This document shows positions 5,142 through 64,000 of a stretch of DNA of 64,000 bases, one piece after another (the stretch's first letter is position 1; each line of letters opens with the position of its first letter). Below the pieces are notes generated by a model. That model saw only the letters and a program-made list of their open reading frames with translations, did not search any database and was not told the DNA's origin. Origin of the DNA: Limnoperna fortunei (lineage: Eukaryota > Mollusca > Bivalvia > Mytilida > Modiolidae); contig OX104123.1 of NCBI GenBank assembly GCA_944474755.1, positions 17,736,275 to 17,800,274 on the forward strand. The letters run 5' to 3'. Position numbers and translations under genes: made by a program.

Positions 5142-5530
5142 CATTTTATGCCCCCGCGACGACTTGTCGGGGGGCATTAAGTTTTACTCATGTCCGTACG
5201 TACGTACTTACGTCCGAACGAATTTCCGTCAAGCTTTTCTCAGAAACCGTACATGAGAACAGTTTGAAATTTGGCAGGGTGGTTCAGTATCACAAGTTGA
5301 ACGTCATAAGCGACTTTCAGACCTGTCAGACAACTACTTCCTGTTTGGGACTTCATTTGTACGTAAATATGTCCGTCCGTATGTACGAATTTCCGTCAAG
5401 CTTTTCTCAGAAACCGTACATGAGAACAATTTGGCAGGGTGGTTCAGTATCACAAGTTGTACGTCCTAAGCAACTTTCAGACCTGTCGGACAACTACTTC
5501 CTGTTTGGGACTTCATTTAGCGGGGGCATC
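5142..5530 (+). mobile_element. Tandem-core repeat element (pearl-like organisation), complete short copy
   Basis: The left end atgcccccgcgacgacttgt can fold on itself. The right end is gcgggggcat, the inverted counterpart of the left terminus. Between them lie two copies of a core containing ccgtcaagcttttctcagaa and ctacttcctgtttgggact. The same core is repeated at 63439-64000. Flanking ends plus internal ~160-bp tandem cores is the organisation known from bivalve pearl-type repeats; family membership is my inference. The long plus-strand frame here (5045-5560) has no protein-like character. Confidence 0.6.
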
Positions 5531-16959: not shown

Positions 16960-18525
16960 TTCTGCTCACCATATCAAAATGTTAAAAAATAAATGCCTTA
17001 AAGCATTAAATATTTTAAAAGTGGTATCCAGTACCGACTGGGGAGCGGAGTGCGATGTTTTACTTAATCTATATAGATCGCTGGTTCGATCTAAATTGGA
17101 TTACGGTTGCTTTATTTATGGTTCTGCTCACAAGTCAAATGTCAAAATCCTTGATACTATACACCATCAAGGATTGCGACTATGCCTTGGAGCTTTCAGA
17201 ACCACACCTGTTGAGAGTTTATATGTAGAAGCAAACGAGCCTTCTTTGTATCAAAGAAGAATTAAGCTCGCTTTGCAATATGCAACCAAGTTAAAGGCGT
17301 ATCCTGGCAACCCGGCACACGACTGTGTTTTCAAACCTCTTTACGAAAATATTTTTGAAAAACATCCAAATAAAATTCAACCTTTTGGTATCAGAATAAA
17401 ACCTCATTTGAACAAACTCTGGTATAAATTTAGATGAAATTGCTGCTATTGAAATTCCACATAACCCACCATTGTTAAATCCAAAACCGGTATTTATTTA
17501 TTGGTCTTAGAAACCATAAAAAGTCTGACACAAACCCTTTAATTATTCAACAACACTTTGCAGAAATAAAATCTCACTATCCTGACCATTCTGCAATTTA
17601 TACAGATGGATCGAAGGACGGCGATAAAGTTGCATCGGCCGCTGTCTTTGGAGAGCGTGTCGAAACACGCCGTCTTCCTTCCGTTTCTTCTGTATTTAGT
17701 GCAGAAGCGCAAGCTATCCTTCTTGCACTAAAAATTATTGCTTCGTCAGATGAGAGTAAATTTATTATCTGCTCCGATTCTTTGTCATGTCTTCAGGCAA
17801 TTGAAAATTCTAAAATTAAAAATCCATTCATTTTAAAAATAATTCAAATTTATAAATCGCTGACAAGTTTAGGTAAAGAGGTTGTGTTCTTCTGGATTCC
17901 CAGCCATGTAGGAATCCATGGAAACACAGTCGTGGACAGAGAGGCTAAAGCTGCCTTAGAAAATGTTATTATTAATTGTAAAATTCCTTTTACTGATTTT
18001 AAATTATATATTTTTAAATACATTTCTAATCTATGGCAGCGTGGTTGGGATCTCGAAGTACATAATAAACTTCATGAGATCCAACCACTTCTGCACATAC
18101 ATAATTTAAAATCTTGTAGAGGTCGTAGAGACCAAATGGTTTTAACCAGGTGTCGTCTTGGGCATACCAGGAAGACACATAGATATATTTTAAACAATGA
18201 ACCAAGACCCGAGTGTGTGCCATGCAACTGTCCATATACCATCAAGCATGTCTTGATGGACTGTGTTGACGTGGCACACATTCGGAAACGTTTTTATTCT
18301 GTTAATTCTTATAATAATTTATTTACAACTGTCGCTTGCGACACAATTTTACAGTTCTTAAAGGAAATTGATTTATACAGAAAAATTTAATTGGATTTTA
18401 AATTGCGATATTGAATAGTTTTTATTGGTTTAGTTTTCTTTTTATCTGTATATATGCTCATATTATTGTACGAGACCTTGTTTTAGAAAGGACGGATATT
18501 CTTTAAATAAATGAATTAAAGTTCT
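16960..18525 (+). mobile_element. LINE with RNase H (I/Loa-like), 5'-truncated 3' half
   Basis: The element starts inside the reverse transcriptase thumb (HIKMLKNKCLKALNILKVV, SLVRSKLDYGCFIYGSA). One frameshift follows near 17440-17490, then an RNase H domain: YTDGSKDG (first Asp), SAEAQAILLAL (Glu), FIICSDSLSCLQAI (Asp), WIPSHVGIHGN and VVDREAKAA. The C-terminus has a Cys/His cluster (CVPCNCPYTIKHVLMDC) and stops at 18388-18390. About 130 bp of 3' UTR ends near aataaatgaattaaag. RNase H helps remove template RNA during target-primed reverse transcription. The domain is nearly intact although the copy cannot be active. Confidence 0.88.
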
Positions 18526-21172: not shown

Positions 21173-22334
21173 TTGTTGTTTAACTATGTAAATTCCTTAC
21201 TTCTGTTCACATAATGTTCTAATATAATGTTTAAAACAGAACTTAAATGTTTACAATAGTATTCAAAATAGTGTTATGATTTAATACAGTACGTCACTTT
21301 CCTTTAGTTATTTAAATTGTTAAACCTGTTTCCCCTGATCATGTTCAGTATTAAAACATGTGCCGTTTATTTAATTATTGAATTAACCTGTCATTTAACA
21401 AATCAAAAATCGAAATAATACATAATTCTTGAATATTTCATTGATACTGTTAATTATACAAAAAAACATCGAATCTCTTAATATTAAGTATCGCGGATGT
21501 CCAAAGTTGCATTGTTTGAAAATAAATACTATTACTTATCATTATTTCTTTTATTAGCTTCTCTTTAATGTCATTTTACAGGAAAGCCTATAAACAAGTA
21601 CATGTCTTATCTATATCTTTGAGCGGATTGCTGCTAGACTTGCTAAACTACAACACATGCTCGGATGTTGTAGTTTATCAGACCTATCAATCAACACAAA
21701 CATATATATGAACAAGAAAAAATTATATATTATGTATGAAGTATACAAGTATTTAACTATTTTATTATGATATTATATGTTATGTAACAAAAGAATATGC
21801 TCTGTAATGCCTACATAGCGTAATCATAGACGCACATTGTTTGTAACATTTATTGTTACCCAATACTTTTTCTCCATAGAATACCATACCAACATCCATA
21901 TATCTGTACATGTTCTTGTTCATAATTGAGAAAGTCCACCCTTTCTTATTTTTTATGCATATATTCTTGCCTTTTTGTTTGTCAGCTCTTAAAAGTGCTG
22001 ATTATATGATGTCCGTCCTACTACAGCTAATATTCCATGACCTGTGGCCCCCCGTATGCTCAGTGATCTCTATCTTTTTCCTCTTACCAGATGGATAGTG
22101 ATTTAATGCAATATCGGGTGGCCAATGGTCGATTTAATTTTGTAAAGATTAAGCAACATGGATGGTTTAAAAGCAAATATCAATCCTATTTTAAAATATT
22201 CCAGATAAACCTTAAATGTAGCTTACATGTATTGGCACTTACCGTTCTTCAGTCATCAGTTCCTAAAACGCTGTTTTTCTGCTGTTTGTACTTCACTTCA
22301 TTCTTATTATTGGAAATGTAGAGCAAAACCCATG
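21173..22334. other. Spacer between LINE ORF1 and ORF2
   Basis: AT-rich and unusually long for an inter-ORF gap. I see no domain. It may contain old insertions I cannot identify. Confidence 0.4.
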
Positions 22335-25300
22335 TCCTTCATTTCTTGAGGAAGACAATGAAAGGTATATATCCATATGTTATTTTAATATACGCAGTAT
22401 ACGGAAAAAAACTTGAATTCATTAATAATACATTTGATGAATTTGATGTTTTAGTTCTTACAGAAATACACTTAAGTCCCAATATTCCTAATGAAAAAAT
22501 CCTAATTGATAGTTTCTCAAAAAATATAATCCGTAAAAATCGTAACATTTACGGAGGACGCCTTATTACTTATAGCAAGGAAGATATATCACTTAACCGT
22601 TTACTGGAACTTGAAAATGACACCGATGAAACTATATGGGTAGAACTTCTCGGACGGGGAATAAAAATCCTTCTATGTGCGGCCTGTAAACCACCGCTGA
22701 CTGACTCGGAAATGTTTTTCACACGATTAAATCATGCGATCGGCTTAAGTTATCAACTAGGCGACAATCTCGTGGTGACGGGTGATCTGAATTGTGATCT
22801 ACTTCAAGCCAATAACAACAAACTGAAAGAGACGATAAACCTTTTTAACTTTTAAAATATTTTAAAACCAACCAGAGTTACCGACACATCCACAACTCTA
22901 CTTGATCCGATTATAATAAGTGAATCACTTTCCTTTTATTATGCCAATGTCCTAGATACACCAAGTGAGGTGTCCGACCACAAAGCATGTTTATGTTTTA
23001 TTAAATGTCCAAACAAGGTCAAATGTACCTTTAAGCGTGATGTTTGGATATATGCGCAAACGAATAAACACAGATTCGAAAATCTGATTGATGAAACTGA
23101 CTGGCATGAATTATTACCGGATGATGTGGATATTGATGAATCGTGTCAAGTGTTTACTGATAAACTCTTAAAAATTGCGAAAGAATGTATACCAACTAAA
23201 TCGGTTACCGTCCGCAAGGGAGATAAGCCTTGGTTTACAAATGAACTTATACGCGAAATGCGAAAAAGGGACCGGTATCGTAAATCTGCTCTACAATAAA
23301 AAAGTGATAGGGATGTTCTAAGGTACAAACAGCAGAGAAACAGGGTTAGTAATCTTAAGAAAGTAGCGAAAGAAAAGTTTGAGCAAAATTTAGATAACCT
23401 AATACTTGAAAATGCATCTACACCCAGAACGTATTGGAAACTTATGAAAATGCTTCTAAAATCCTATAAAGGATCGACGGATATTCCCCCGCTTAGGGAT
23501 ATAACACTCGGTACAGATACTGAAAATTATGTTTATAAAGAAACTGAAAAATGTGAAGTGCTGAATAAATATTTTTGATTCATTTCAAAGGTCGATGCCC
23601 AAAACCAACTTCCACCACCAGTCGATCAAAGAACAGAACATTTTATTAATAGTATTAAAATAGAACAAAGTGAAATTGTTGATATCTTAAAAATTTTAAA
23701 ACCAAATAAGGCATTGGATCTAGATATTATAAGCCATAGGATGCTAAAAATATGTCCTCAAAAAGTCTCGTTACTTCGGCAAATATTGTTTAACAAATCG
23801 CTTAGACAATGTAAGTTTCCATCTAATTGGAAAATTGCATCAGTGGTTCCAATCTTCAAGAAAGGTAATCAGTCTCTGCCATCTAATTATCGTCCTATAG
23901 ATGGAAAGGATTGTTTACAAACTTTTTTTTACAACCATTTTTTATAACAATCTTTTATATGAATATCAATCAGGTTTCCTTCCAAAATACTCTACGGTTC
24001 ATCAACTGCTTGAAATGTATAACTGTATACTTAACTCACTAGAGAAGAAAGAAATTAACTGTTTTGGGTTTTTTTGTGATTTTTCTAAAGCGTTTGATAA
24101 AGTCTGGCATGATGGTCTCTTGAAGAAACTTAAAGCATATGGAATAAAAAATAATCTCTATCTGTGGCTTGAAAGCTATCTAAAAGCAAGAAAACAAAAA
24201 GTTGGTATACACTCGTATGAGTCACCCTTAAATAATATAACAGCTGGTATACCACAAGGATCCGCCTTAGGACCCTTATTGATTATTATATATATTAATG
24301 ACATTGCACTTAGATTAAAATCTTTATGTAGGCTATTTGCTGATGACACATCGTTTAACTATTCCCATCATGACCGAGAACACATTAAAACGGTTATTGA
24401 TCATGATTTGCAAGAGTTAGATGATTGGTAAAAAAATGGCAAATGTCCTTTAACACAAACAAAACTGAAATTGTCATCTTTTCGAACTCGGATGTAACTG
24501 ATATAAATTTTAATCTAAATGATATTCCTATTCCTATATCCGATAGTCATAAACACCTGGGCGTAACATTTAGCATTGATGCTAAATGGAACACCCACGT
24601 TGAAAACATCGTAAAAAGTGTAAAATATCAGGTAAGTCGTAATTTGGAAAAGTTATATCTAGTATTTATAAGACCATTGTTGGAATATGCATCAGAAGTG
24701 TGGGATAATTGTGGTGCTGGCAATGCCTCAAAGTTGGAATAATTACAATTAGGAGGCAGCACGTATAGTAACAGGACTTCCTCTTTTTACAAAATTTGAA
24801 ACATTATATGGAGAAATTGGTTGAGAAACTCTGGCTAATAGACGACTTAAACGCCGGCTAAACATGTTTTATAACATCCAAAACCTTGATCCAAATTATC
24901 TTAATAGACTGGTACCTCCTAAGGTGCAAACACTGAGTGCATATCCACTAAGAAAAGGTGAAGATATAATACTTCCGTTTTGCAGACTGTCGATAACTTC
25001 GAACTCTTTTATTCCAAATACAATAAGGCAGTGGAATAATATTGATCTAAGTGTTCGGAAAGCACACTCTATTGGTGCCTTCAAGAATGCCTTGAAAGCA
25101 TCCGGTCTAACCAGTTTAGAAGTGCCAAAACATTTTTCATATGGTCCCCGAAAACTCAATATAATTTTAGCACAACTTAAATGCTCTGCCTCCTTTCTTA
25201 ATTATGATTTTTTTAGAGCAAATCTTGTTACTAACCCTACTTGCAGATGCGGTGACCCTATCGAAAACAAACAGCATTACGTTTTTGTCTGTCCTATATA

Positions 25301-25475
25301 TAACAATGACAGAATTCAACTGTTAAATAACCTAACTTGGCATCCGAATGGAATAAACATTGATATCAATACGCTTACCCAAGGAAGTAAAGATCTATCC
25401 TATGATGAAAATATTCTCATTTTTAGAAATGTTTTTGAGTTTATTAAACGATCCAAAAGATTTACAATTACCTAA
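22335..25475 (+). pseudogene. LINE ORF2: endonuclease + reverse transcriptase + C-terminal Cys/His motif
   Basis: Endonuclease: FDEFDVLVLTEIHLSPN, VVTGDLNCDLL (GDxN) and EVSDHKACLCF (SDH) near 22973. Reverse transcriptase: FFCDFSKAFDKVWHDGLLKK, GIPQGSALGPLLIIIYIND and CRLFADDTSF with the FADD catalytic pair at about 24338. C-terminus: CRCGDPIENKQHYVFVC, a CCHC-like motif common in Jockey/CR1 ORF2. Stops lie near 22853, 23297 and 23576, with frame changes near 23930, 24430 and 24750-24860. The enzyme would nick target DNA and prime cDNA synthesis there. Catalytic residues remain but the frame is broken. Confidence 0.88.
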
Positions 25476-33675: not shown

Positions 33676-35240
33676 GAGGTCTTTCCCAGCATTTTGGTAG
33701 TGTTATGTCTCGGTATATGGTTGATAATGACTTTAAATCGAAGGGCTTGACATATCGGTCACAAAAAACTTATATATTTACTATATAATCTGCAACGATT
33801 TAAAAGTTATTGACAAATAACGCAGTTTACGATATGTTTTTGGCCACCATTTTGAAACCACTCAACCGAATATGTACTTCTTGGGATCAAATTGTAGGAA
33901 TTTTAATTCTCTTGCAAATGAACCATATGTTTCATTCATCATCTGTAACGTTTAAAATGTTATAAAGCAATAACCATTTTCAAAATATGAATCAAGGGCA
34001 ATAACTCAAAAAAAACAACAAGTTTTACGCTTTCATATATGAAACATTTTTTGTACATTTCGATGTGACGAACATTTTTCCCTTGTATTGTCTGCTTCAA
34101 TTTTGTACGGTTCAAGTGTCATTTTATAAAACTGTTTACGGTATCGGCCATTTTGAAAATGGCTGCCCGTAACCATTTGACTTTGGTCTTAAACTGAAGG
34201 GCTTGTTATGACGGTCATAAAACACCAATATGTTCACTATATTATCTCTGAAGGTTTAAAAGTTTTTAGCCAAAAACTGATTCGCCGAAACGTGTCAAGG
34301 GCCATAACTCGAAAACGGTTTGTCGCACAGTTTTCAATCCTTAAATCAAATGTAGATCTCAATGAGAGGAACATTTTTCTGATATATTGTCTGCTTCAAT
34401 TTTTTATGGTTTTTGTGTTATGTTGAAAACAAAATTTAGCCGAAACGTGTCAAGGGCCATAACCTCGAAAATGGTTTGTCGCACAGTTTTCGACACTGTA
34501 TATCAAATGTAGATCTCAATGAGAGGAACATTTTTCTGATATATTGTCTACTTCAATTTTTTATGGTTTTTGAGTTATATTGAAAACAAAATTTAGCCGA
34601 AACGTGTCAATGGCCATAACCTCTAAAACGGTTTGTCGCACAGTTTTCGACACTTTAAATCAAATGTAGATCTCAATGAGAGGAACATTTTTCTGATATA
34701 TTCTCTGCTTCAATTTTTTATGGTTTTTGAGTTATATTGAAAACAAAATTTCAATGGCGGCCATTTTGAAAATGGTGGACCGAAACATTTTTTTGATCCG
34801 ATACGTGTAATAAGGACCCTCATATCTACTTGGAAACCAAGTTTTGTGTAAATCCAACAACTTTGACGTTTTCGACAAACTTCGCGTCAAAATCGCGTAA
34901 ACAGGAAGTGGATCGAAGAATGTTTTTTTGCATGACAAATCATCGCCATAGAACCAGCGACATTTTGTACACTTCAGATTTTAAAAATCGGTTACGGTTT
35001 CTGAGTTTATCTGCTAACAAGGGTTTTCTTGTTGGGGCAGATAACTCTGTTACTAAAAATAAATTGGTCTAAAAGCATGAGCCATGTCATCTCCGGATAT
35101 GACCGATTAATGGTACCAAGTATCGAAATGATATGTCGAGCCACTTTTTGGCAAACCCCCGCGGAAGAAGAAAAATAATAATAATAATAATCATAAGAAA
35201 TACAAGAAGGTCTTTCCCTATGGAAAGGGGAAAGACCTTA
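33676..35240. mobile_element. Element ending in ggtctttccc hairpins, with three 155-157-bp core repeats
   Basis: aggtctttccc at the left (33678) is answered by ggtctttccctatggaaagg then ggaaagacctt at the right (to about 35238). Inside, units starting at 34284, 34439 and 34596 repeat gccgaaacgtgtcaa, ggccataac, gtttgtcgcacagttttc and gagaggaacatttttctg. Flanking ends plus internal tandem cores matches the other tandem-core elements in this window. Confidence 0.6.
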
Positions 35241-41915: not shown

Positions 41916-42330
41916 ATTTTGGCAAAGAAGATAAAGCCTTACTTTCAAGTATTCCTAAATCTGATATAGAAACCCCAAATTATTACAATATTGTGAATTA
42001 TATATGCCAAAAACTGTAATGAAAATAAGTGTATTTGTTTTAACAAACATGCAGAACAGTTTTGTGATAAAGAACAAATTACATGTTTATCTAAGACTGA
42101 TAAGTCAAATACATGTATACAAACATTAAGTTCTTTACAACAATACACATGTAGTCTACCACAGCATGAGTCCCCAGTAGCATCCATCACAGATAATCCA
42201 CTATCTATATTTTTCTCTTATCTACTTTCATTTTACTTTATATTAATGAATTAAGTAAACAAGTTCATACTTATCATTATATTCAAGCTAATGCAAATGT
42301 ATACAACTTTAATGAAACAAATGGTTTATT

Positions 42331-44550
42331 ATGTGTTCTCATAATATAAACAGAATATCTAATAAGTTTGATGAAATTAAGCATAATCTTTTAGATTCTA
42401 AAAATCCACCCCACATTATAGGGTTTTGTGAAACTTTTCTTGATAATTCAACAACTGACAATGAGATTGAAATTCAAAATTACTCATTAATTAGGAAAGA
42501 TAGGGTCACACATGGTGGAGTGTTATTAATATATTTTTCAAATACATTAAACTGTAGGAGATTACAAGAATTGGAATCAGATCTTGAAACTGTATGGTTA
42601 GAGGTGAAACCAGATCACAGAAAATCTTTTCTCGTTTGTTTTGTGTATGCCCTCCCCCCCCCCCCCAAATCATTAACGGAATGGTTTGATAAATTTGAAT
42701 ATGAATTGTTAAATGCTATGAAAATTAATACTGATATAATTCTTATGGGAGATTTTAATCTTGGTTTTTTAACTCCAAATAAAATATCTCCAAAATGGAT
42801 TAGTATCTTAGAAACACTTGATTTTCATCAAATTATCCAAGAACAAACTAGAATAACAGAAAATTCTAAAACTTTCATAGACCATATATATGTTAGAAAC
42901 AGAGATATAATAGAACAAATAAATGTCCTAAAATACAGCCTAAGTGATCACTACCCTGTAAGTATTATTAGAAATGATAAAATTACTACAAGAAAACATT
43001 CACACACCACTTGTTACATTTTGAAATTTTAGAAAATTTGATGAATATTCTTTCTTAAATTGTATAACTACTGCACCCTTCTTATGAAGTTGAAATGGAG
43101 TGTGATCCAGAGAAATGTATTGAAATATGTTATACTATTTTCAACACTATTATAAATAAACATGCCCCACTAATTACTGAGAGAGTAAAAAGAGAAAATC
43201 AACCTTAATGGTATAATGAAGAAATTAGTAATGCTAGAAAAATGAGGGAAAAATATCATGCTCTTAGGTCCTGGTCAAATTATAGATTTTGGAGAAACAA
43301 AACAATTCAACTCACAAATGATCCAAGAATCTTGTGGAGCTGCATTCAAAGTCTTACTCCTACATCAAATATAACACCATACAAATTAAAAATTGGAGAT
43401 GACAAACATGTTACTGACACAAAAGAAATTGTTACCATATTTAACATTTTTTTACTACATGTGTAGACAAATTGAGAGAAACTGACTCTTGATTCCTCAT
43501 GCACTGAATTTATCAAGCTAAGAGAATTTGTAACGGATAAATTAGCACAACCATTTTCAATTCCCTACATACAGGTACCTGATTTACTACTGAGTATAAA
43601 TAAACTTAATGTAAACAAATCAGCAGGATCTGATTGCATTGGTCCAAAGTTACTCAAACTAAGGGCACCATTTATTTTGTCTTCTTTAACTTGTATATTT
43701 AATAAAATGATTGAAAAGGGTATTTTTCCTGACATTTAAAAAAATGCTAAAGTATCACCAATATATAAATCAGGAGATAAAGATTTAACTTCAAACTATA
43801 AGCCAATTTCAGTTCTCCCCACTTTAACAAAACTTATTGAACACCATGTTCAAAAACATTTCTACAGTTATTTGTCAAATTTAAATTTACTTCATCCAGC
43901 ACAATCAGGATTTAGACCTAATCATTCATGCCAAACCGCTCTAACTAATATTATTGATCATTTTCTTGAACAAAGGGAACATAAACGTTGCAATCCTTCT
44001 GGACCTAAGAAAAGCTTTTGATGTGAATGACCATGATATATTATGCAAAAAAATTAAATATAAATGGGTGCAATACAAAAACAGTTGAACTTTTCAGGTC
44101 ATATTTGAACAATCGAACACAGAAAGTCCAAATAGGAAATATTAAATCAGATCCAATGAAGATCAAGTATGGTGTCCCCCAAGGTTCAATACTTCGATCT
44201 CTTCTCTTTATATTATATATTAATGATTTTCCCCTTCATGTTAAAACATTACCTTACTGATCTATATGCAGATGACTCAACAATTCATTTATCTGGTACA
44301 AATGTAGATGATCTGGAAGCCAAAATTCAAGAAGACATACTTGAAAGTTTATAAATTGTAGTAAAACAAAGTGTATGGTTATTGGCAAAAGCTTGTTACA
44401 AAAAATAAGAATTTCAATCTCTGTCTAAAATCAATACCATTGGAGATTTCAAATTGTGAAAAAATTTTAAGAATTAAAATTGACTCAAATCTACACTGGA
44501 CTGAACAAGATGACAGTGTATGTTTAAAAATTTCAAGTTGAATCTATTGA
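42331..44550 (+). pseudogene. LINE ORF2: endonuclease and reverse transcriptase
   Basis: The first 233 codons are intact: NKFDEIKHNLLDSKNPPHII, ILMGDFNLGF (GDFN), FIDHIYVRN and LKYSLSDHYPVSIIRN (SDH). Then come frame changes, the linker (MREKYHALRSWSNYRFWRNK), and reverse transcriptase blocks: [53 protein letters not shown] and DLYADDSTIHL with the YADD pair at about 44264. The thumb decays and ends near 44550. No RNase H. The internal poly-C run at 42654-42666 encodes a Pro stretch and may be an expansion. Confidence 0.85.
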
Positions 44551-44625: not shown

Positions 44626-44813
44626 TACTGTACAGTTGTCAGTTGTATAAACCGTGATATTCATGAATTTATTATTTATTTATATTTAGAATATTATTTA
44701 CATTATTTATTTTTTAACAATAAATATTATTCTAAGTATAAACAAATAATAAATTCATTAATATCAAGAAGTTTAACATTAGATGGTTTATATAAACTGA
44801 TAACTGTACAGTA
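44626..44813. repeat. Imperfect inverted repeat next to the MULE target site
   Basis: 44626-44699 (tactgtacagttgtcagttg) pairs with 44730-44813 in reverse (gataactgtacagta), with one arm carrying about 15 extra bases and a ~30-bp loop. It ends five bases before the 9-bp duplication at 44819. Confidence 0.75.
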
Positions 44814-44827
44814 CTCCCTTTTGTAAC

Positions 44828-44964
44828 CAGAATAGCTATTTTGCGGGCCTGTGGGCATGCGGGTTGCGGGTTTGCAGGCTGCGGGCATGAAGTGGGTATG
44901 CGGGTTGCGGGTTTGCAGGCTGCGGGTATGTGGGTTGCGGGTTTGCAGGCTGCGGGCATGAAGT
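44828..44964. repeat. Left terminal inverted repeat of the MULE with minisatellite
   Basis: Outer 21 bp, then repeats built of gcgggttgcgggtttgcagg and tgcgggcatgaa, ending gcgggcatgaagtgtatatt. The right end, read inward, ends gcgggcatgaacgttatatt. Minus-strand open frames here (His/Thr/Pro-rich) are repeat artefacts. Confidence 0.85.
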
Positions 44965-47364
44965 GTATATTTAAATATAATCTCATGTTGATTAATAACC
45001 ATTAGAATTTTTATTTCTAATAATAGAATGCTCACTAAGTTTTTATCAGCAATAATCAACTAACTTATGTTACACACATTATTTTGAACATGTGGCAACA
45101 AAAACTTATTACAAGAAAAACTCTTATCTTCATATCAATGGTTTTATTTCCTTGGTTATGCAAATTTTAATCTTCTTCATATCATTGGTTTTATTTCCTT
45201 GGTTGTGCAAATTTTAATCTTTCACCAGCTTCTCTTTATAAAATAATTTATTAATGGTGCTTTTTTTGCTATTTATTTCTATAAGCATTGGCATCATATT
45301 TAGGGTCGATTTTTGTGCCTGTCCCAAGTCAGGAACTTCTAGCCTTTGCTTGTCTTGTCTATTTTTTAATATTTTGGTTTTTAATGTTTAATGGGTTAGG
45401 TCTAGCGTCCATTCGCTGAACTCGTATACACTTTTTATGGGGCCAACTGCAGCTCGCCTCTAGGTGTGGTGTATTTCCACCGTTCATTGAAGATCATTCT
45501 GTGACATTGGGTGGTTTTACACAAATTCCGGGTTGTTGTCTCTTAGACATTTACCCGATTTCCACTTTAATTTATATCATTTATGAATTCAATAATTAAG
45601 TAATATTATATTCTTTCTAAAACCTCTGCAAATAACAAACAAAAATCAAAGAGGCAGTATGTATCTATGTTAAGAAGAGATGAAATAATGCAAGTTGCAT
45701 TATTTTGCAAATCTGATGAATCTGTTCTGTCAGATAAATTTTTTTATTAATTTAAAATTTTCATATTTTTTGGAATAAAACTATTTAACCAAGACAAAGT
45801 CTAGTTTGGGTGTGTATTATTTCTTTTAAGTCATTCTTTAGATTTCAATGTCTAGTTTTGTCGTTATTTGTTGTAGTTGTTTGCAGGATGTTAGTATGGT
45901 TTTTTTAAAATTTCAAAATGTAATTTGCACTTCGTAGTAGAATTATGGTAGTCATTGACTCTTTGACCTATTATATATTGTACCCATTTTAATGACCAGG
46001 ATTCTACTGAAAATTCATTTTATGAATGAATGTCGGAAAACATAATTCTTGATTGGTGTGCTCATTTTTTAGTTCCAAGGGTTTTTTCTTGTTTATACAT
46101 TTTATATGTAGATATGTGTTTAATTGTTAGATAAAGTCTGTTGAATCTATTTCATTTTCTGTCATTACATCTTTTGTAATGCCTCAAGAACATTATGATA
46201 AATGTATATATTTAAAAAGGAACTGAGGAATGTGTCAAATAGACAAGACTCCTCCAGGAAGAACAAACCAAAACAAGACCATCCACAAGTCTTCAGTGAA
46301 GACGGTTGACTCATGATATCTATTATGTATAAATTATTATCCCTCATTTGTTTCAATTAAAACTTTAATTGAACTTCACCACAAAGCCATAAAAGATGCC
46401 TCACATAATAAACTGAAACAGAAATGCTCGTAAAATTGTAAACTATGTATACCAAATTTCGGTCTCTATCTCTAAACACTGGTAATAAATGAAACTAACT
46501 TCTAATTGGAGAAACCAACAAATAGAAACCAGTATGGCCCTTTTCCCTATAACTTTGTCTAAAAAAGGACATGAAGATATCCCAATATTAAAGGAAGCAA
46601 ATCACAATTTTAATATATTTTATTGAATTGTACACATGTACGTGTTTTGACATTTGAATAAAAGTAGTAAGTTCCACACAGTTCTTAGCAAGATATCAAT
46701 TATATTCCTTATCACCAAAGTCACATTAATTTCATTCATCATGATATATACATGTACTGGTATGCTATAGACAAAACATCTGTTTATGCCTTTAGTAAAG
46801 TAATTAGCAAAAAAAAAGCCAATATTTATGTATTAAATTATAATATTTGTTTATATATTAAGTTCACTTATTTCAAATTATTTTTTTTTGTTAACAAGGT
46901 ACCCAAGTGCTCTTTTCAACAAGTCTTCATAAATGGTACCCTATAAAACTAAAGTATTTACAATAAAAATTACTCAAAAAATAAAATCTTATTTATAAAA
47001 AGTGTTAAAAAACTGAGAAATCAGTTTATACAATGTATTTTTAATATTTTGGCTTAACACTAGTGTGTGATTATTGTATCTGAATTAATTATCAATAAAA
47101 AAGAAAAAAAATTTTAAAATGTCACAAAACATTCATTTTGCAGACAAGTCTAAATCTTGAAATATGATCTTAGTCATATTCAACTACAAAAATGCACAAT
47201 AATAAAAAAATGTTTTTTGCAATTTTTAAAGTACAAGAAAATACCCTTATATTATCAAGTTGTAGAAAGGCAACATGACTAAGGGAACAATTTTTGTTCA
47301 CAAATGAGAGCAAATAATAAACCTTTTCCAAGTCTGTTATAGATAAAAAAAAATATTATCTGAA
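44965..47364. other. Internal non-coding part of the MULE (3' of its gene)
   Basis: Holds a ~50-bp tandem duplication (45140-45225, ggttttatttccttggtt twice). 45310-45570 (gtgcctgtcccaagtcagga to tgttgtctcttagacattta) and 46200-46320 (gaatgtgtcaaatagacaag) both resemble interspersed repeats common in bivalves. No second gene seen. Confidence 0.45.
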
Positions 47365-50300
47365 TCAATATTCAATACCAGATCGCCTTAAAACGTCTTT
47401 GTGTTCAGAGGAAAGACTGGCTTGGAGATGAACTGGAATTATGATACTGTTAATATCAAAATCTGGATGAATATTTTTCACACATTGTTCATTTATATGA
47501 TAATAAGCATTTGACTTGTCTTTTCCCTGGTACCATGACTTGGAATGCTTGTCATATTTTGGCCTTAATTCCTTTGTGCTTTATTACCAAATCATAAGGC
47601 ACCCTCCTATCATCTTCTGAAAAGTTTCTATCACAACCATAACACTTTTTGATAAGACCAATAAGATAGGTGATTTCATATTGATCATCTGAGGTTGCAA
47701 AGGCAGACAATGACTTTAACTCATTGTAAGATTTTTTATCCGAAGAAGATGCCGCATTTGTTTTACTTGTATAGATCCCGACCCTCTCTATTATTTGTCG
47801 GATTTCTTTCTGTGTATAGCTATACTGTCGAAGAATGTCATCATCTCTATGAAATCCTATTTTTAACAAGAGGAATAACCTGTGTTGACAAGGAGCTTTT
47901 CCAGATAATGCTACATCTTGTAACAATGAAAAACCGCAAGTGCACCGTGTGTGTTGGTCAAAGTTTACAACAAATAACTCATTCCTGGATTTAAGTTCAA
48001 TCTGGCATTGTGTAGGAGACTGAAGAACTATATCACATATGTCAAAAGTATCTTGCTTGTCAATGGCTTTCTGGAGGCAACTTGTGAAGGTAGTACTGCT
48101 GGTGTTTCTTTTGCGACCAATTGGACGAGTGTTTTCTTCCTTTGGTCCCTTGTCTGCACGGTGGGATGCTCTTTTCTCCGCATGAAATGCCCCCATTACT
48201 GGTACTGTTGGTGCTTTTCCACCACAATATTGATCTTCCAATTCATTCATCAATTCTGTCAAATTTCTTGATGTTTTTTCTGATTCTTTAGCAGCTTTTG
48301 TCATTTGTGTTGGCCCTGATCCTGGCTTAACTGTTCCAATGCCATAACCTTTTACCTGCTGTTCAAATTTAAATGACTCTGAAACATCAAAGATAGCTGC
48401 TTCGGCCATATTTAAGTTTGTACCTCCTGAAAGTGACATGGAAGCATGACAAGCTTCAGCTAAATTTGTGTTTGGACAGGATTTAGAAGGGCGAAAGGCG
48501 TCACTTATATGGCTTCTTCTTGTGTCCCACCATGTCAACCATTTCATCAAGTTTGGTTTGTTTATTGTTCAAAACTTTCATTATATTGGTTAACTGTGGC
48601 AGCATTTACCAGCATATTTACATACCTTTTTAATTGTTTGATTTTCGCATCTGCTTTTTCTCCAATATGAGCTGACTTTATGTGCCTGGAAGCACATGTT
48701 GCGTAATGCAAACGACAGGTAACCACATTGTCATCACAATATTGCTTTCCATAACGCTCTTGTAGTGCTGCATGTAGAGCCCCACCTTCATCCAACATCC
48801 AACCTGCTGCTGGTTTAAAAGATGTGACTTTCTCCTGTGAGTGGTCTTTCAACATCATGTCAATTACATTAAGTAGTTTTGTGACTGCTTCCGAGGATTC
48901 CTTCTCACAATCCATTCTGACAAGCCATACTACTTTTTTTAAAAGTGGGTGGTATATACTAATACCAAGGGTCTTAAGGTTTTTTCCTTTCACTTTTACT
49001 CTGTTCATTTTAAAATCCATAAATATATACTCTTCTCCAAGAAAGCTGTCAGGTTTCATTGATTCCAAAAGTGTATTTAACCTTAGTTTTGACGATTTGA
49101 TGATGTAAGTTTCATGATCATCAGGTCTGTCTGATGCTGTCTCTTTTCTTTCGATCGAGTCCTGTTTTACTGTGGAATTAATTACATATGTAACATTTTG
49201 TCTGTTTTCTTTTATTTGGTATTGGTAAAGCATGTACCCATCTTTAAAATTATTTAGACATTTAATCTGCAGTTCTTTCAATTTCTCATTGATTGGTTCC
49301 TTTTGTATTATGTGCTGCTTAATGTTTCGGATTTGTCGTCCATCCGAAAGATTGTAGGCTAACTCTTCTATCTCGGCTCTGTTGTTACTTTCATATACTT
49401 TCTGCATTAATAACCTGTTTGTTGTTTGGACTGGTTTTTGGCTTGGATTGAGTTTAAAAGCATCCTGAAGTTCTTTTTTGGGTGGATCTGGTTTCTTAGT
49501 AGGCAGACAGCTATGGATACCATTGTGGAATATCTGAACAGCGTTTGAATTCTTTTGAAATTCCCATACTTTAGTAGCGCTACATTTGATATGTTTTAGT
49601 GGAGTATTACACTCTTGGCAATTTAAATTGTCTATTTTAATGGTATGTTTTGAATTTGGAAAGCCATAGAATTTTAGAAAAGGACATTCTTGATTTGAGC
49701 ATTGATGCGAGCCTTTGCAACTTGATTTTAAACGTAACCCGCAGTCTTTTCGAAAACTCGATGTAAAGGATTTGTTGTATCTTCCCCAATTTCTACCATC
49801 TGTGGAGCTTCGCATTCTGTTCCCCTTAGTCTTGTCATATTCTAATTCAAATGCGCAGTCCCCGTCAATGTCAAATGGTAGTTTGTTTACTTTATGTATC
49901 ACTACAGCTTCAGATTTTTCACTTTTAGAGGATGTTATCTCAGTGTTGCTTTCAATTTCTTCAACATTTATTACATTGCACTGAATTTCGATTGGATCAG
50001 ACGAATGACCTGGTGAAAGTGATGGTAAAGAATCTGAGTCGTTGTATTCAGTTTTAATCAAGGGGGTTCTTTCATCACTTGAGGAAGATGTGCTACTATC
50101 ACTAACTATAATGATAACCTGATCTCTACATTCAGTAATTTTGTCAATTTTCTTGGCCTGTGAAATTCGTCTTCTTTTGATTGTTATTTCTGGTAGGCTC
50201 TCTTGGTCTTCTGGAACTTCCCTTTTCTGTATTCTTGGACTTCCCATTTTTCGTACATTGATCATGTCATCATCACTGTCTTTAATTTCAATATAACAAT

Positions 50301-50869
50301 CCTCCTGACATGAATCTGAAAGAAAAGTCAGAATCTCAGAATTCAGTGGTTGATATTTACATGCATAATGACATAGATCAAACACAATTACAAACAAGAG
50401 GCCCAAGGTTGGTTATGGTTGGGGCTGTACTCACCATGAATTTCGTCACTTGGTGTCTGTCGTCTTCTTAAATAATTTAGAAAATTTTTTTTCTACAGTT
50501 ATATGCCAAGAAATCTTTATTATTACTAGTAACCTTTTTAAAGGGATAACTCATATCTCTTGAAACTTTTTGTCACATTTGGAATTGATGCTTTAGAATT
50601 GTTCTATCTTTTTTATATACACTTTAAAACAAATAAAACATCAAAACACAATTTTTGTACATTCTAAGGAATAACCATGCCAACTTTCACTTCATTCTTT
50701 TCTGTGGTTTCAGAGAAGAGGATGTTTGAAAAAGTTAACAGACATTGACGATGGACCCCTTGTGATAACAAAAGCTCACATGAACCTTATCAACAAGCCC
50801 AACTGGATGACATTCACTTTTAGGTGTTTGACTCGGCACTTAAAAATTGATTAAATATAAACAAGAAAA

Positions 50870-51415
50870 TGTGTCTAACGGACACAGTGCCCCACCTTTA
50901 TATTCATTAAACTAACTTCAAACTGTAGGTAAACCTAAGTATAACACCCCACCTTTTCGTGTGATCAATCACCCCCCCCCCTTTTGTGTGATCAATCAGC
51001 CATGATGTGATGAGAAGGGCACAGTTTTATGGTGATATTTGTTAGATCATAATCTGATGTATATGTGAATAAAGTTTCATGATAAAACGCTTTTTTAATG
51101 GAAAACTAACTTCAACCTGTAGATAAACCAAAGTATAACACCACTTTTTGGTGTGATCAATCAGCCATGACGTTGATGAGACAGGAAAAATTTTATGATG
51201 ATATTTATGAGATCATATCATGATGTATATGTGTAAAAAGTTTATCATAATACAACACTTCTTTCTTGGAAAACTAACTTGTAAAACCTGTAGGTAAACC
51301 TGACATGCCTGATTTGGACATACAGACCGCAGGACGGACCGAAGAAAGGATGGACGAACAGACCCGAACATTATATGCCCCTCTACTCTCGTAGGTGGGG
51401 CATAAAAAATATATA
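50870..51415. mobile_element. Tandem-core element, second type, in MULE intron 3
   Basis: Starts near gtgtctaacggacacagtgc and ends near cgtaggtggggcataaa. Three core copies begin with aaactaacttcaaactgtag, aaactaacttcaacctgtag and aaactaacttgtaaaacctg, each followed (first two fully) by gtgtgatcaatcagccatga. Same architecture as the elements at 5142 and 33676. Confidence 0.6.
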
Positions 51416-51945
51416 AAATAAAGAGAGAATGTGTCCATAGGACACAGATGCCCCAGCAAATATCAAAGTATCGGCAAACAGGAAGTAGCTACCCAAGCCA
51501 TCTGAAAATTGCTTAGAACATACAGTACATCATGGTGCGTCACCCTACCAAATATCAAACCAATCTGACGTGTCGTCGCGGGGGCATAAAAATAAAACAA
51601 GAGCTGTCTCAGAAGCGACAAATGTCCCCAAGGATGTCTGGACATAGGAAAGTTAGGATATTAATTTGGTGGTCAAGACATTGTCGTTTGCTAGAAGGAC
51701 CCTGGCTTTGCCAATTCTTGCACCAATTTCTAAGTTTCAGCCCAGACAGGCCCAGCACAATGGATATAGCAATCCCTCAAAGCGATACAAAGTTATTGTC
51801 TGGACACAAAAAACGCTAGTCCTAAAGGTGTGACATTGGTGAAGTCAAAATATGGAGCCACCTTCACTACAATGAATTATGCTATCCCATGTAGATAGAT
51901 GAGTTCACTAAATCATTTTTGGTAATATATGTAATAAAAATTTAC
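51416..51945. repeat. Degraded repeats in MULE intron 3
   Basis: 51470-51595 is a diverged reverse copy of the 167-bp core (aaacaggaagtagctaccca) ending gtcgtcgcgggggcataaa. 51600-51780 (gagctgtctcagaagcgaca) looks like another interspersed repeat. Confidence 0.5.
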
Positions 51946-52645
51946 CTTCAAAATTGTCTTCATCATCAGAAGATTTGCAGTCATAATCATTGGTCTCAGT
52001 AACATAATTTTTCTTTGAGGGTGTGAGGTTTCTAGGCAGTTCCTCATCAACTACACATTCATCTGTCTCATTTGAACTATCGTCAAAAATCCCCTTTAAA
52101 TGGAAAACAAATTACATTCATTTTTTTCCAAAATTCAATTGTGCGCAACGACAACAAAGTCAAAAAATTACACTGGGATCAGAAAAGTTGGAAATTTCTA
52201 ACTAACTGAAACAAGGGGTCAATATTGCTCACCTAAAACTTCACAAGATATAACTCGTTACAAAAATACATCTGACAACTTCAGTCTATGGGGACTTTTG
52301 TATAGTTTAATACAAGTAAGCTGTTAAACACTTCAGTTATTCCCTTCTACTACCTGTATCTTTTCCAAGCTAAAGGCCCCAAAAAGGCAAAAGTCAACAA
52401 AAGAATGCTTCCTTTTTATTCTACCATTCTCTTGTCAAAGGTCAGTAACTTCATAAATCAATATTTAAGACTTTTCATAAGAGATAGCTATTTGTCATAA
52501 CTCAATTATCTGATAATTTCAGCATCAAACATTTTTTCTCTATCATGAAACATTTTTCAAGTAATAGAACCAATCCTGAAAATGCCCAAACTGTGATCTT
52601 CCAAGGACGATTATCCTATAAGGATTTATTTAGTTACCTGGAGGG

Positions 52646-52895
52646 GGCCGCAGTGCCCGAGTGGTCTAGGTAGTACTACCTGTACAGATCGATACTGTAG
52701 CCTGTCATCTCTCAAGTGTGCATTTGCAAAAATGACTTGGTGTGTTCAACTAGCACTCAAATGTAAAAGAGTTTGTCAGTCACTAACCTACCCCAAGTCA
52801 ATGGTTTCCTTCGGGTACTTTCCAGCTTTCCCCACCATCCGTCGCGATATAGCTGAAATATTGCTGAAAGTGACGTAAAGCCCTAACATACAAAA
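52646..52895 (+). mobile_element. SINE-A variant in MULE intron 2
   Basis: A-box-like gtgcccgagtggtctagg at 52654, a diverged middle, then gatatagctgaaatattgct and gaaagtgacgtaaagccc with a short a-rich tail. The rest of 52896-53449 (acac repeat at 52970-52990, a gggaacctccagcctctg repeat) is intronic repeat sequence. Confidence 0.75.
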
Positions 52896-54691
52896 AAACT
52901 AAAGAAATAGTTCCCTGATATTTATGGTGGTGGAGGGTTTAGTACTCAAAACCCCATGGTCAACCCCACCCCCCCCCCACACACACACAAGGTTTGGCCC
53001 CTGTCTCTCGCCGGGAACCTCCAGCCTCTGTGTTTTTATGATTTTCTAAATTTTCATTGCTCTGTACTAGTTTACATGTTGTTGGGCCCAATATAGGTAT
53101 TCCCTAGAGTGTGAGTGCTACTCACTTTTCATTGAAGAATTATATGGGTTTTTTATGTTGATATGTTCTCAAACCAAGACGCCACATTCCCCATTTGCAT
53201 TCTATTTTATATGATGATTTCTTAGAACCAGCAAATATCATTAAAATGTTTATAAAAGCAACAGAAAACTGCATGCAGTTATTTGTATAACTTCATTGAG
53301 TCACTTGGTGATTTAAAAAATAATTAAGAAACAAAATTTTAAAAAGAATTCTTAATTTAATTAACTATCAGAATTTTTTTTTCTTTTTGCCCTCATATTG
53401 ACTAAAATATATAGGACTGTATAAATTGGAAAATGAGCAAAATATTTACCTCCCAGCCAGCATCCACACCTTCTTGTAAATTCTTCTCAAGTCGCCCAAC
53501 AATTAACCTATAATTAAAGTTGTAGACATTATAGTTTTCTAGAATTTGGTAAAAAAAAAAGTTCGAACAATATCAAGGGTACTCTCTAAACTAACATAAA
53601 ATATAGAAGTGATATTAATTTTAATGTGACATTGATTAAGGGTGCAAATTTTAAAATAACATCATATTGGTGTTAAGTTTTGTTTAAATTTAAAAGTTCT
53701 AACTGCTTTTGAAAAAAAGATCACTTCTGTAAAATTGATTGTGATGTTTTCGTACTACATATGTTTGTCATTACTCCGTTGCTTTTAGTTAGATATCCTG
53801 CTGATTTTTTGTATAGCACATTATACGGTTATTTAAATGTATATTGAGCACATCATCAAAATTCTCATAAAAAACAAAAATGAAACCACCTTTTAGCTAA
53901 TATCTATTCAATTGTTGTCTGAGAACTTTAAGCCTATTGTCTTTATAAAATTAATTAACATTATTGAAGAAACTTTAAGTGAACCTACAATACAATTTAC
54001 ATACAATAGTAGTACATGTATATATTGCACTAACCTTCTATGAAAGAGTTCTCTTTTTCCTTTATCTAACTCTTCCATGTAGTTGACGGACAGGGGGTTT
54101 TTATGTCGGACAAATTTATTTGAACATTATAAAGTTATTGGGTATATGAAATCCCTATACTAGCCAATATTCCCTCCTCTTAATGGACTTATCTTGGAAC
54201 CAAACCCTTTCTGATATATATTGTTTGAATTTTCTATGTTGACAATTAAGTGCTGGCAATAAAATTTTGAACAATTAAAAAGTCAAAGAAACATACATTC
54301 TTGTCACAAAAAGTAAAATATTGTAACATTGTGGAGATATTCAAAGTGATAAGGGTTTCTTTCTCAGCATATACAGTTCCTGAGAATAGCCTGTGGTGGG
54401 TTTTTCTTTTTCATGATTATGGTTTTCTTGATGTAAAAGATGTTTTGATGACTCAACAGATCTTTATTTTCACATGATTTTATTGTCAAAACTGGCATTT
54501 ATGACCAACTTTAAAATAAAAGAAGATAGATCCTTCAATAGGGTCAAGAACTGAAAGGGGAATATATCAAAGATTTTAAAAAGAATTTATTTAAAATACA
54601 TATGGTCCAATTTATGATTATGTGTGCAAGTGAGACATAGTTAAAACAATTTTAATAAAATATTTGTCTGTATAGAATATGTAAACGAGAC

Positions 54692-54836
54692 AAATATAAC
54701 GTTCATGCCCGCAGCCCGCATTCTTCATGCCCGCATCCCGCAACCTGCCCACAACCCGCATGCCCGCAACCTGCATGCCCGCATGCCCGTAACCCGCAAG
54801 CCCGCAGACCTGATTGCCCGCAAATTAGTCGCTTTG
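54692..54836. repeat. Right terminal inverted repeat of the MULE with minisatellite
   Basis: Units of cccgcatgcccgcaacctgc type, ending outward in gcccgcaaattagtcgcttt(g) at 54816-54836. It lies about 615 bp upstream of the transposase ATG, so it may carry the promoter. Confidence 0.85.
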
Positions 54837-54845
54837 TTTTGTAAC

Positions 54846-63375: not shown

Positions 63376-64000
63376 CCCCCGCGACGACATGTCGGGGGGT
63401 ATTAAGTTTTACTCGTGTCTGTACGTCCGTACGAATTTTCGTCAAGCTTTTCTCAGAAACCGTACATCAGAACAATTTGAAATTTGGCAGGGTGGTTCAG
63501 TATCACAAGTTGTACGTCCTAAGCGACTTTCAGACCTGTCGGACAACTACTTCCTGTTTGGGACTGGGCCGATATGAAAATGTGTTAACATGAGTATGAA
63601 AATTTCCGTCAAGCTTTTCTCAGAAACCGTACATCAGAACAATTTGAAATTTGGCAGGGTGGTTCAGTATCACAAGTTGTACGTCCTAAGCGACTTTCAG
63701 ACCTGTCGGACAACTACTTCCTGTTTGTGACTGGGCCGATATGAAAATGTGTTAACATGAGTATGAAAATTTCCGTCAAGCTTTTCTCAGAAACCGTACA
63801 TGAGAACAATTTGAAATTTGGCAGGGTGGTTCAGTATCACAAGTTGTACGTCCTAAGCAACTTTCAGACCTGTCGGACAACTACTTCCTGTTTGTGACTG
63901 GGCCGATATGAAAATGTGTTAACATGAGTATGAAAATTTCCGTCAAGCTTTTCTCAGAAACCGTACATGAGAACAATTTGAAATTTGGCAGGGTGGTTCA
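63376..64000 (+). mobile_element. Tandem-core repeat element, 167-bp cores, open at the right edge
   Basis: Left end cccccgcgacgacatgtcgg as at 5149. Cores (cgtcaagcttttctcagaaa) start at 63440, 63607, 63774 and 63941, exactly 167 bp apart. The last runs off the window. Cores differ by a few bases only, so the array is homogenised or young. Confidence 0.85.

What the first reader, a model, noticed from the sequence alone, without database searches (positions are those of the whole stretch)
44819..54845. A whole ~10-kb Mutator-like transposon with minisatellite inverted ends and a perfect 9-bp target duplication
Seen directly: ttttgtaac at both borders; 21-bp ends aligning ungapped at 15/21; oppositely oriented G/C-rich minisatellites just inside each end; one large transposase gene between them in the right place. 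Established: MULEs make about 9-bp duplications, and FB/NOF of Drosophila has tandem repeats inside its inverted ends. Inference: this is a mollusc MULE family of FB/NOF-like build with a GCM-SWIM transposase, possibly undescribed.
Basis: partly seen in the sequence, partly recalled or inferred. Interest (0 to 1): 0.88.

Follow-up and report, generated by a model that had tools for sequence, protein, structure and literature searches.

The report
Transposon ends mirror GCM-factor binding sites
A 10-kb jumping gene, probably from a mollusc, has two mirror-image ends built from repeats of the core of the DNA word bound by GCM gene switches, and its own transposase (broken in this copy) has a predicted GCM-type DNA-binding domain that would likely grip those ends, which suggests how such repeat-ended transposons may recognise themselves.

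Summary
A perfect 9-bp repeat (ttttgtaac, 44819-44827 and 54837-54845) brackets a 10,009-bp element with 145-bp composite inverted arms. A spliced minus-strand gene, interrupted twice in this copy, encodes a Mutator-type (MULE) transposase: DDE triad, CxxH, SWIM-like finger, core fold nearest the ISCth4 transposase. 6 of 6 ATGCGGG(T/C) and 19 of 24 (A/T/C)TGCGGG in the 64-kb window lie in the arms, all reading inward. I infer that the transposase binds its own minisatellite ends through the GCM finger. GCM-bearing MULEs (MuDRF) and tandem-repeat ends (Tm1, Muta5) are each in print; my searches found no paper linking them. Other copies, empty sites and the host could not be tested: the genome search did not complete.

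The parts
44819..44827 (.). left copy of the 9-bp target-site duplication (ttttgtaac)
   Evidence: read directly; for chance
54837..54845 (.). right copy of the 9-bp target-site duplication
44828..44972 (+). left composite inverted arm, 145 bp: 14-bp outer end, then 9 TGCGGG cores (first at bp 15-20, last at 124-129) among further degenerate units, then an inner motif shared with the right arm
54692..54836 (-). right composite inverted arm, 145 bp: 10 TGCGGG cores (first at bp 15-20, last at 124-129) among further degenerate units
54035..54078 (-). predicted exon 1 of the transposase gene (starts MEELDKGKRELF)
   Evidence: splice signals and phase
53450..53507 (-). predicted exon 2
51946..52093 (-). 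predicted exon 3
48565..50315 (-). main exon, first stretch: acidic N-terminal region, GCM domain, first two catalytic residues
49438..49899 (-). predicted GCM-type zinc-finger domain (ORF residues 172-325; conserved positions C232 C238 C243 C265 C268 C277 H300 C302)
49015..49017 (-). first catalytic Asp (ORF residue 466)
48790..48792 (-). second catalytic Asp (ORF residue 541)
47552..48568 (-). main exon, second stretch in another frame: catalytic Glu, SWIM-like finger (47858-47971), start of the C-terminal Cys/His region
48455..48457 (-). catalytic Glu (NLAE motif)
47374..47571 (-). C-terminal end of the transposase, in a third frame
   Evidence: tblastn with P0001

Best explanation
This is a 10-kb DNA transposon bracketed by a perfect 9-bp direct repeat, and its Mutator-type transposase is predicted to recognise its own ends through a GCM-type zinc finger that would bind the tandem TGCGGG words making up both inverted arms. 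Shown by sequence: the direct repeat, the two arms, the array of TGCGGG cores whose first and last copies lie at matched distances from both termini, the conserved D, D, CxxH and E residues, and eight conserved Cys/His positions in the finger. Predicted: the fold of the catalytic core and of the GCM domain, and the exon structure. Inferred, untested: several transposase molecules load on the array; the core that starts 15 bp from each terminus sets the cut; the two ends are paired; the excised DNA is inserted with a 9-bp stagger. The array may have grown by repeat slippage because more sites give tighter or more specific binding, as argued for VANC proteins and VANDAL elements. This copy is probably immobile by itself, but its ends look usable by an intact relative.
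Confidence: 0.55

Rival explanations
1. A MULE with slippage-grown G+C-rich minisatellite arms, as in other foldback-like elements; the likeness of the unit to the Gcm site is chance, and the transposase binds something else, for example only the outer 21 bp.
For: Tandem repeats in MULE ends are common: Tm1 has a 13-15-bp unit with a different consensus; 10 of 12 long-TIR mosquito families have 9-15-bp repeats. The outer 21 bp match at 15 of 21. About 10 of 29 units deviate inside the core.
Against: The unit carries the exact core of the site bound by the domain class predicted in the transposase, in one orientation, with first and last copies at the same distance from both termini; chance about 0.001 for one named word.
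Confidence: 0.3
2. The arms are binding sites for the host's own Gcm transcription factor, giving the transposase gene a cell-type-specific promoter or silencer, rather than sites for the transposase.
For: The right arm lies about 0.6 kb upstream of the predicted first exon, and Gcm sites are functional regulatory elements in animals.
Against: The left arm has the same kind of array and I found no gene reading from it; matched spacing from both termini fits end recognition better.
Confidence: 0.1
3. The 9-bp repeats and inverted arms are unrelated features; there is no single 10-kb insertion.
For: No empty site or second copy was seen; TTTTGTAAC itself is over-represented in the window (8 against 2.2 expected).
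Against: The repeats abut the arm termini exactly, and the interior encodes a transposase of the superfamily known for about 9-bp duplications.
Confidence: 0.03

Closest known systems
MuDRF (MuDR superfamily branch of basidiomycete fungi and Naegleria, in the Puccinia striiformis genome paper PMC3164196; passages read)
   Same: GCM DNA-binding domain plus DDE transposase in one protein; 9-bp duplications
   Different: Host group; the passages I saw say nothing of tandem repeats or Gcm-type words in the ends; no MuDRF sequence was at hand for a tree
Muta5/Muta1 of Aedes aegypti (PMC5225508; passages read)
   Same: Muta5 TIR of 151 bp with 9 copies of a 15-bp subterminal repeat and a short terminal motif; 8-9-bp duplications; DDE
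   Different: FLYWCH finger; transposases of 416-554 aa across the families; repeat sequence not seen
Tm1 of root-knot nematodes (PMC3169594; passages read)
   Same: Composite inverted ends with unequal outer motifs and 13-15-bp tandem repeats; 9-bp duplications; MULE transposase
   Different: FLYWCH/Phantom-type transposase; different repeat unit
Foldback FB/NOF of Drosophila (build recalled; FB4 duplications and TIR length from passages of PMC8277862)
   Same: Repeat-built inverted ends, 9-10-bp duplications
   Different: No NOF sequence compared; arms about 700 bp in FB4
VANDAL elements with VANC proteins (PMC5735166; passages read)
   Same: A MULE-encoded protein that binds a short motif accumulated as tandem repeats in the element's own DNA
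   Different: VANC is an anti-silencing protein, not the transposase; repeats in introns and upstream regions, not inverted ends
OTU-bearing MULEs such as MuDR-6_HM (group 14, Cnidaria, of PMC6446971; table seen)
   Same: Relatives P0008-P0014 and P0016-P0018 share the finger and core region; P0014 has a Pfam OTU domain
   Different: The window's N-terminus has no recognisable OTU; membership of P0014 in group 14 is a guess

Membership tests
Mutator-like (MULE) superfamily | DDE catalytic triad with CxxH between second Asp and Glu | tested here: met
   9 of 9 rows for D, D, E and H, 8 of 9 for C
Mutator-like (MULE) superfamily | IS256-like catalytic fold (that ISCth4 is of the IS256 family is recalled) | tested here: met
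Mutator-like (MULE) superfamily | 8-11-bp target-site duplication | tested here: met
   9 bp, one copy only
Mutator-like (MULE) superfamily | match to the Pfam MULE model | tested here: inconclusive
   none at E up to 1 or up to 0.1; the family is divergent
GCM-type MULE (MuDRF-like) | GCM domain with its two Cys/His metal sites | tested here: met
   as a prediction; no Pfam GCM hit
GCM-type MULE (MuDRF-like) | common clade with fungal MuDRF | not testable with these tools
   no MuDRF sequence at hand
Foldback (FB/NOF) | inverted ends built of tandem repeats | tested here: met
Foldback (FB/NOF) | transposase related to NOF | not tested
   no NOF sequence at hand
Rehavkus | PHD finger in the transposase | tested here: inconclusive
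   no PHD hit in Pfam at E up to 1, but Pfam also misses the GCM and MULE parts of this family
Rehavkus | mini-satellite prior to the 3' TIR, 9-bp duplication (as described in PMC6446971) | tested here: inconclusive
   9 bp met; here repeats make up both arms; no Rehavkus sequence compared
Phantom (Tm1, most Muta families) | FLYWCH finger | tested here: inconclusive
   no FLYWCH hit in Pfam at E up to 1 or, for finger pieces, up to 10; the finger's fold is nearer GCM, but Pfam misses GCM too

The most novel reading that the evidence does not exclude
A transposase and its transposon ends are matched as GCM finger and array of GCM octamers: the DNA word read by the animal developmental factors Gcm/GCM1/GCM2 is the end-recognition word of a living lineage of GCM-type Mutator transposons, so the factor's specificity was inherited from a transposase together with its finger.
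Probability: 0.35. Interest if true: 0.88.

Novelty: new variant of a known kind. Interest (0 to 1): 0.62.

Why it matters
Many MULE and foldback elements have minisatellite ends whose purpose is unclear. Here the repeat word and the predicted class of the transposase's finger point at each other, which makes a cheap binding test possible. If it holds, it supplies a reason for the repeats and a concrete case for the view that GCM/WRKY-type transcription factors and their target words come from transposases.

Tried and rejected
Other copies and empty sites: the genome search on the window's own assembly did not complete (21 calls). Related loci: genome contigs and viral contigs gave pattern matches but no relative, or no match at all; one DNA pattern of the arms each found nothing in viral contigs and genome contigs. 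So no DNA of a second family member was read. Sub-threshold or chance matches in Pfam, NCBIfam and PDB were set aside, except SWIM. Rehavkus and Phantom: not filed there; the tests are inconclusive. The N-terminal exons do not resemble the N-termini of P0001 or P0002 (no tblastn hit). 1odh is absent from the 50 rows printed by Foldseek for either model and by the second look at P0001's model; it appears only in the second look at the window's model. Of the P0008 search, nine new proteins were scanned against Pfam; P0017 was aligned but not scanned. Alignment A7 uses 16 rows: the window ORF plus 15 of 18 proteins; P0005 and P0007 were left out as lacking the finger, P0015 for a fused kinase. 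P0015-P0017 were never printed. Searches are limited to relatives sharing exact words, and 101 scored only the 7992 candidates sharing most words.

Papers. Seen of PMC6446971: abstract, outline, section 8, part 1 of section 6, passages. Seen as passages only: PMC3169594, PMC8277862, PMC10294476, PMC4701085, PMC8859918, PMC10027918, PMC5575656, PMC4350883, PMC13359780, PMC4079207, PMC5735166, PMC3164196, PMC5225508. PMC5209662 was opened and held none of the terms asked for. Babu et al. 2006 (WRKY-GCM1) and Cohen et al. 2003 (GCM structure) are not held; what I say of them is recalled or second-hand. That I found no print linking GCM-type MULEs with Gcm-type words in their ends rests on the ten searches of an open-licence library, several with cut listings, and on those passages; it is not proof of absence.

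Full report
Observation. The sequence shows ttttgtaac at 44819-44827 and 54837-54845, directly outside two inverted ends. Between them lie 10,009 bp. The outer 21 bp agree at 15 positions. Going inward, the agreement does not stop: a local alignment of the two arms runs from bp 9 to bp 145 (44828-44972; 54692-54836 on the other strand) and ends in a shared inner motif, with score 91 against a highest 27 in 300 shuffles. Both arms are 62-64% G+C in a 35% G+C region. A 9-bp match exactly at both borders has a chance of about 8.5e-6.

The arms. They are arrays of TGCGGG, 9 exact cores on the left and 10 on the right, with spacings of 7-8 and 15-19 bp. In both arms the first core starts at bp 15 and the last at bp 124, though the spacings between differ. 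All cores read inward. Of 24 (A/T/C)TGCGGG words in the 64-kb window, 19 are in the arms; of 7 ATGCGGG, 6; of 6 ATGCGGG(T/C), 6. Thirteen of the 19 cores have T or C, not A, at nucleotide 1, and about 10 of the 29 units listed (TGCAGG, TGTGGG and the like) deviate inside the core. No TGCGGG occurs in the 26 other tandem arrays examined.

The gene. On the minus strand four exons with consistent splice signals and phases lead into a long reading frame. The frame is broken near 48565 and near 47571; the relatives that cover these places read on. This copy is therefore probably not autonomous. A search with residues 180-616 found 5 relatives, an alignment search 8 (3 of them new), and a search with the most distant of these 11 (10 of them new), 18 proteins in all. 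The nearest named ones are a Mytilus galloprovincialis protein and one from a 3.7-kb contig binned in a Candidatus Thiodiazotropha MAG. That bacterial genus is, from memory, a symbiont of lucinid clams, so the contig is likely host DNA. A mollusc host for the window is likely but not shown.

Putting them together. Published work gives ATGCGGG as the word enriched at loci bound by Drosophila Gcm, with sites changed at nucleotides 2, 3, 6 and/or 7 not bound, and ATGCGGGT as the optimum for GCM1 and GCM2. The 19 exact cores keep those four nucleotides and vary at nucleotide 1. Eight of the 157 distinct 7-mers in the arms occur six times or more; a word named beforehand would be one of these, on either strand, with chance about 0.001; 0 of 2000 dinucleotide shuffles reach six copies. 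I noticed the likeness after seeing both parts and scanned no other factors' motifs, so this is a strong lead, not a proof. The simplest reading is that the finger binds the arrays and the catalytic core cuts at a fixed distance from the first core.

Known relatives. GCM plus DDE in one protein with 9-bp duplications is known from fungi as MuDRF. Inverted ends with 13-15-bp tandem repeats are known from Tm1 and, at almost the same length (151 bp, nine 15-bp repeats), from Muta5. A MULE-encoded protein whose short target motif spreads as tandem repeats is known from VANC/VANDAL. New here, as far as the searches listed under Tried and rejected go, is the match between the two halves, in a probable animal member. 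At least one relative carries an OTU protease domain by Pfam (P0014), a feature listed for a cnidarian group, MuDR-6_HM.

Limits. One copy only; no second locus; no binding data; no tree against named MULE families, because none of their sequences was at hand. The verdict is a new variant of a known kind with a testable mechanism.

Noticed in passing
44626-44813: Palindromic MITE-like element (ends CTGTACAGTT..., flanked by TA) that stops 5 bp before the left 9-bp repeat of the transposon.
   Followed up: partly
22322-25475 and 42316-44021: Non-LTR retrotransposon remains: endonuclease and reverse-transcriptase reading frames in pieces; an RNase H frame at 17479-18390.
   Followed up: partly
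5218-5518, 34284-34751, 63434-64000: Tandem arrays of 157-167-bp units; a stretch of the transposon's predicted intron (about 51426-51600) resembles the ones near 5.5 kb and 63.4-63.9 kb.
   Followed up: partly
4008, 14692, 36589, 38418, 59024: The same 21-23-bp tandem motif (ATGAACATGAAATGATGATAA or its complement) recurs at five places, as if inside a dispersed repeat family.
   Followed up: no
52647-52880: Looks by eye like a tRNA-derived SINE inside a transposase intron; ARAGORN and Rfam report nothing there.
   Followed up: partly
P0008-P0018 (proteins): A wide family of proteins joining the GCM-like finger to a MULE-type core, with an N-terminal OTU domain recognised by Pfam in P0014 (by eye also in P0008 and P0009) and, in P0015, a kinase domain (perhaps a gene-prediction fusion).
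   Followed up: partly
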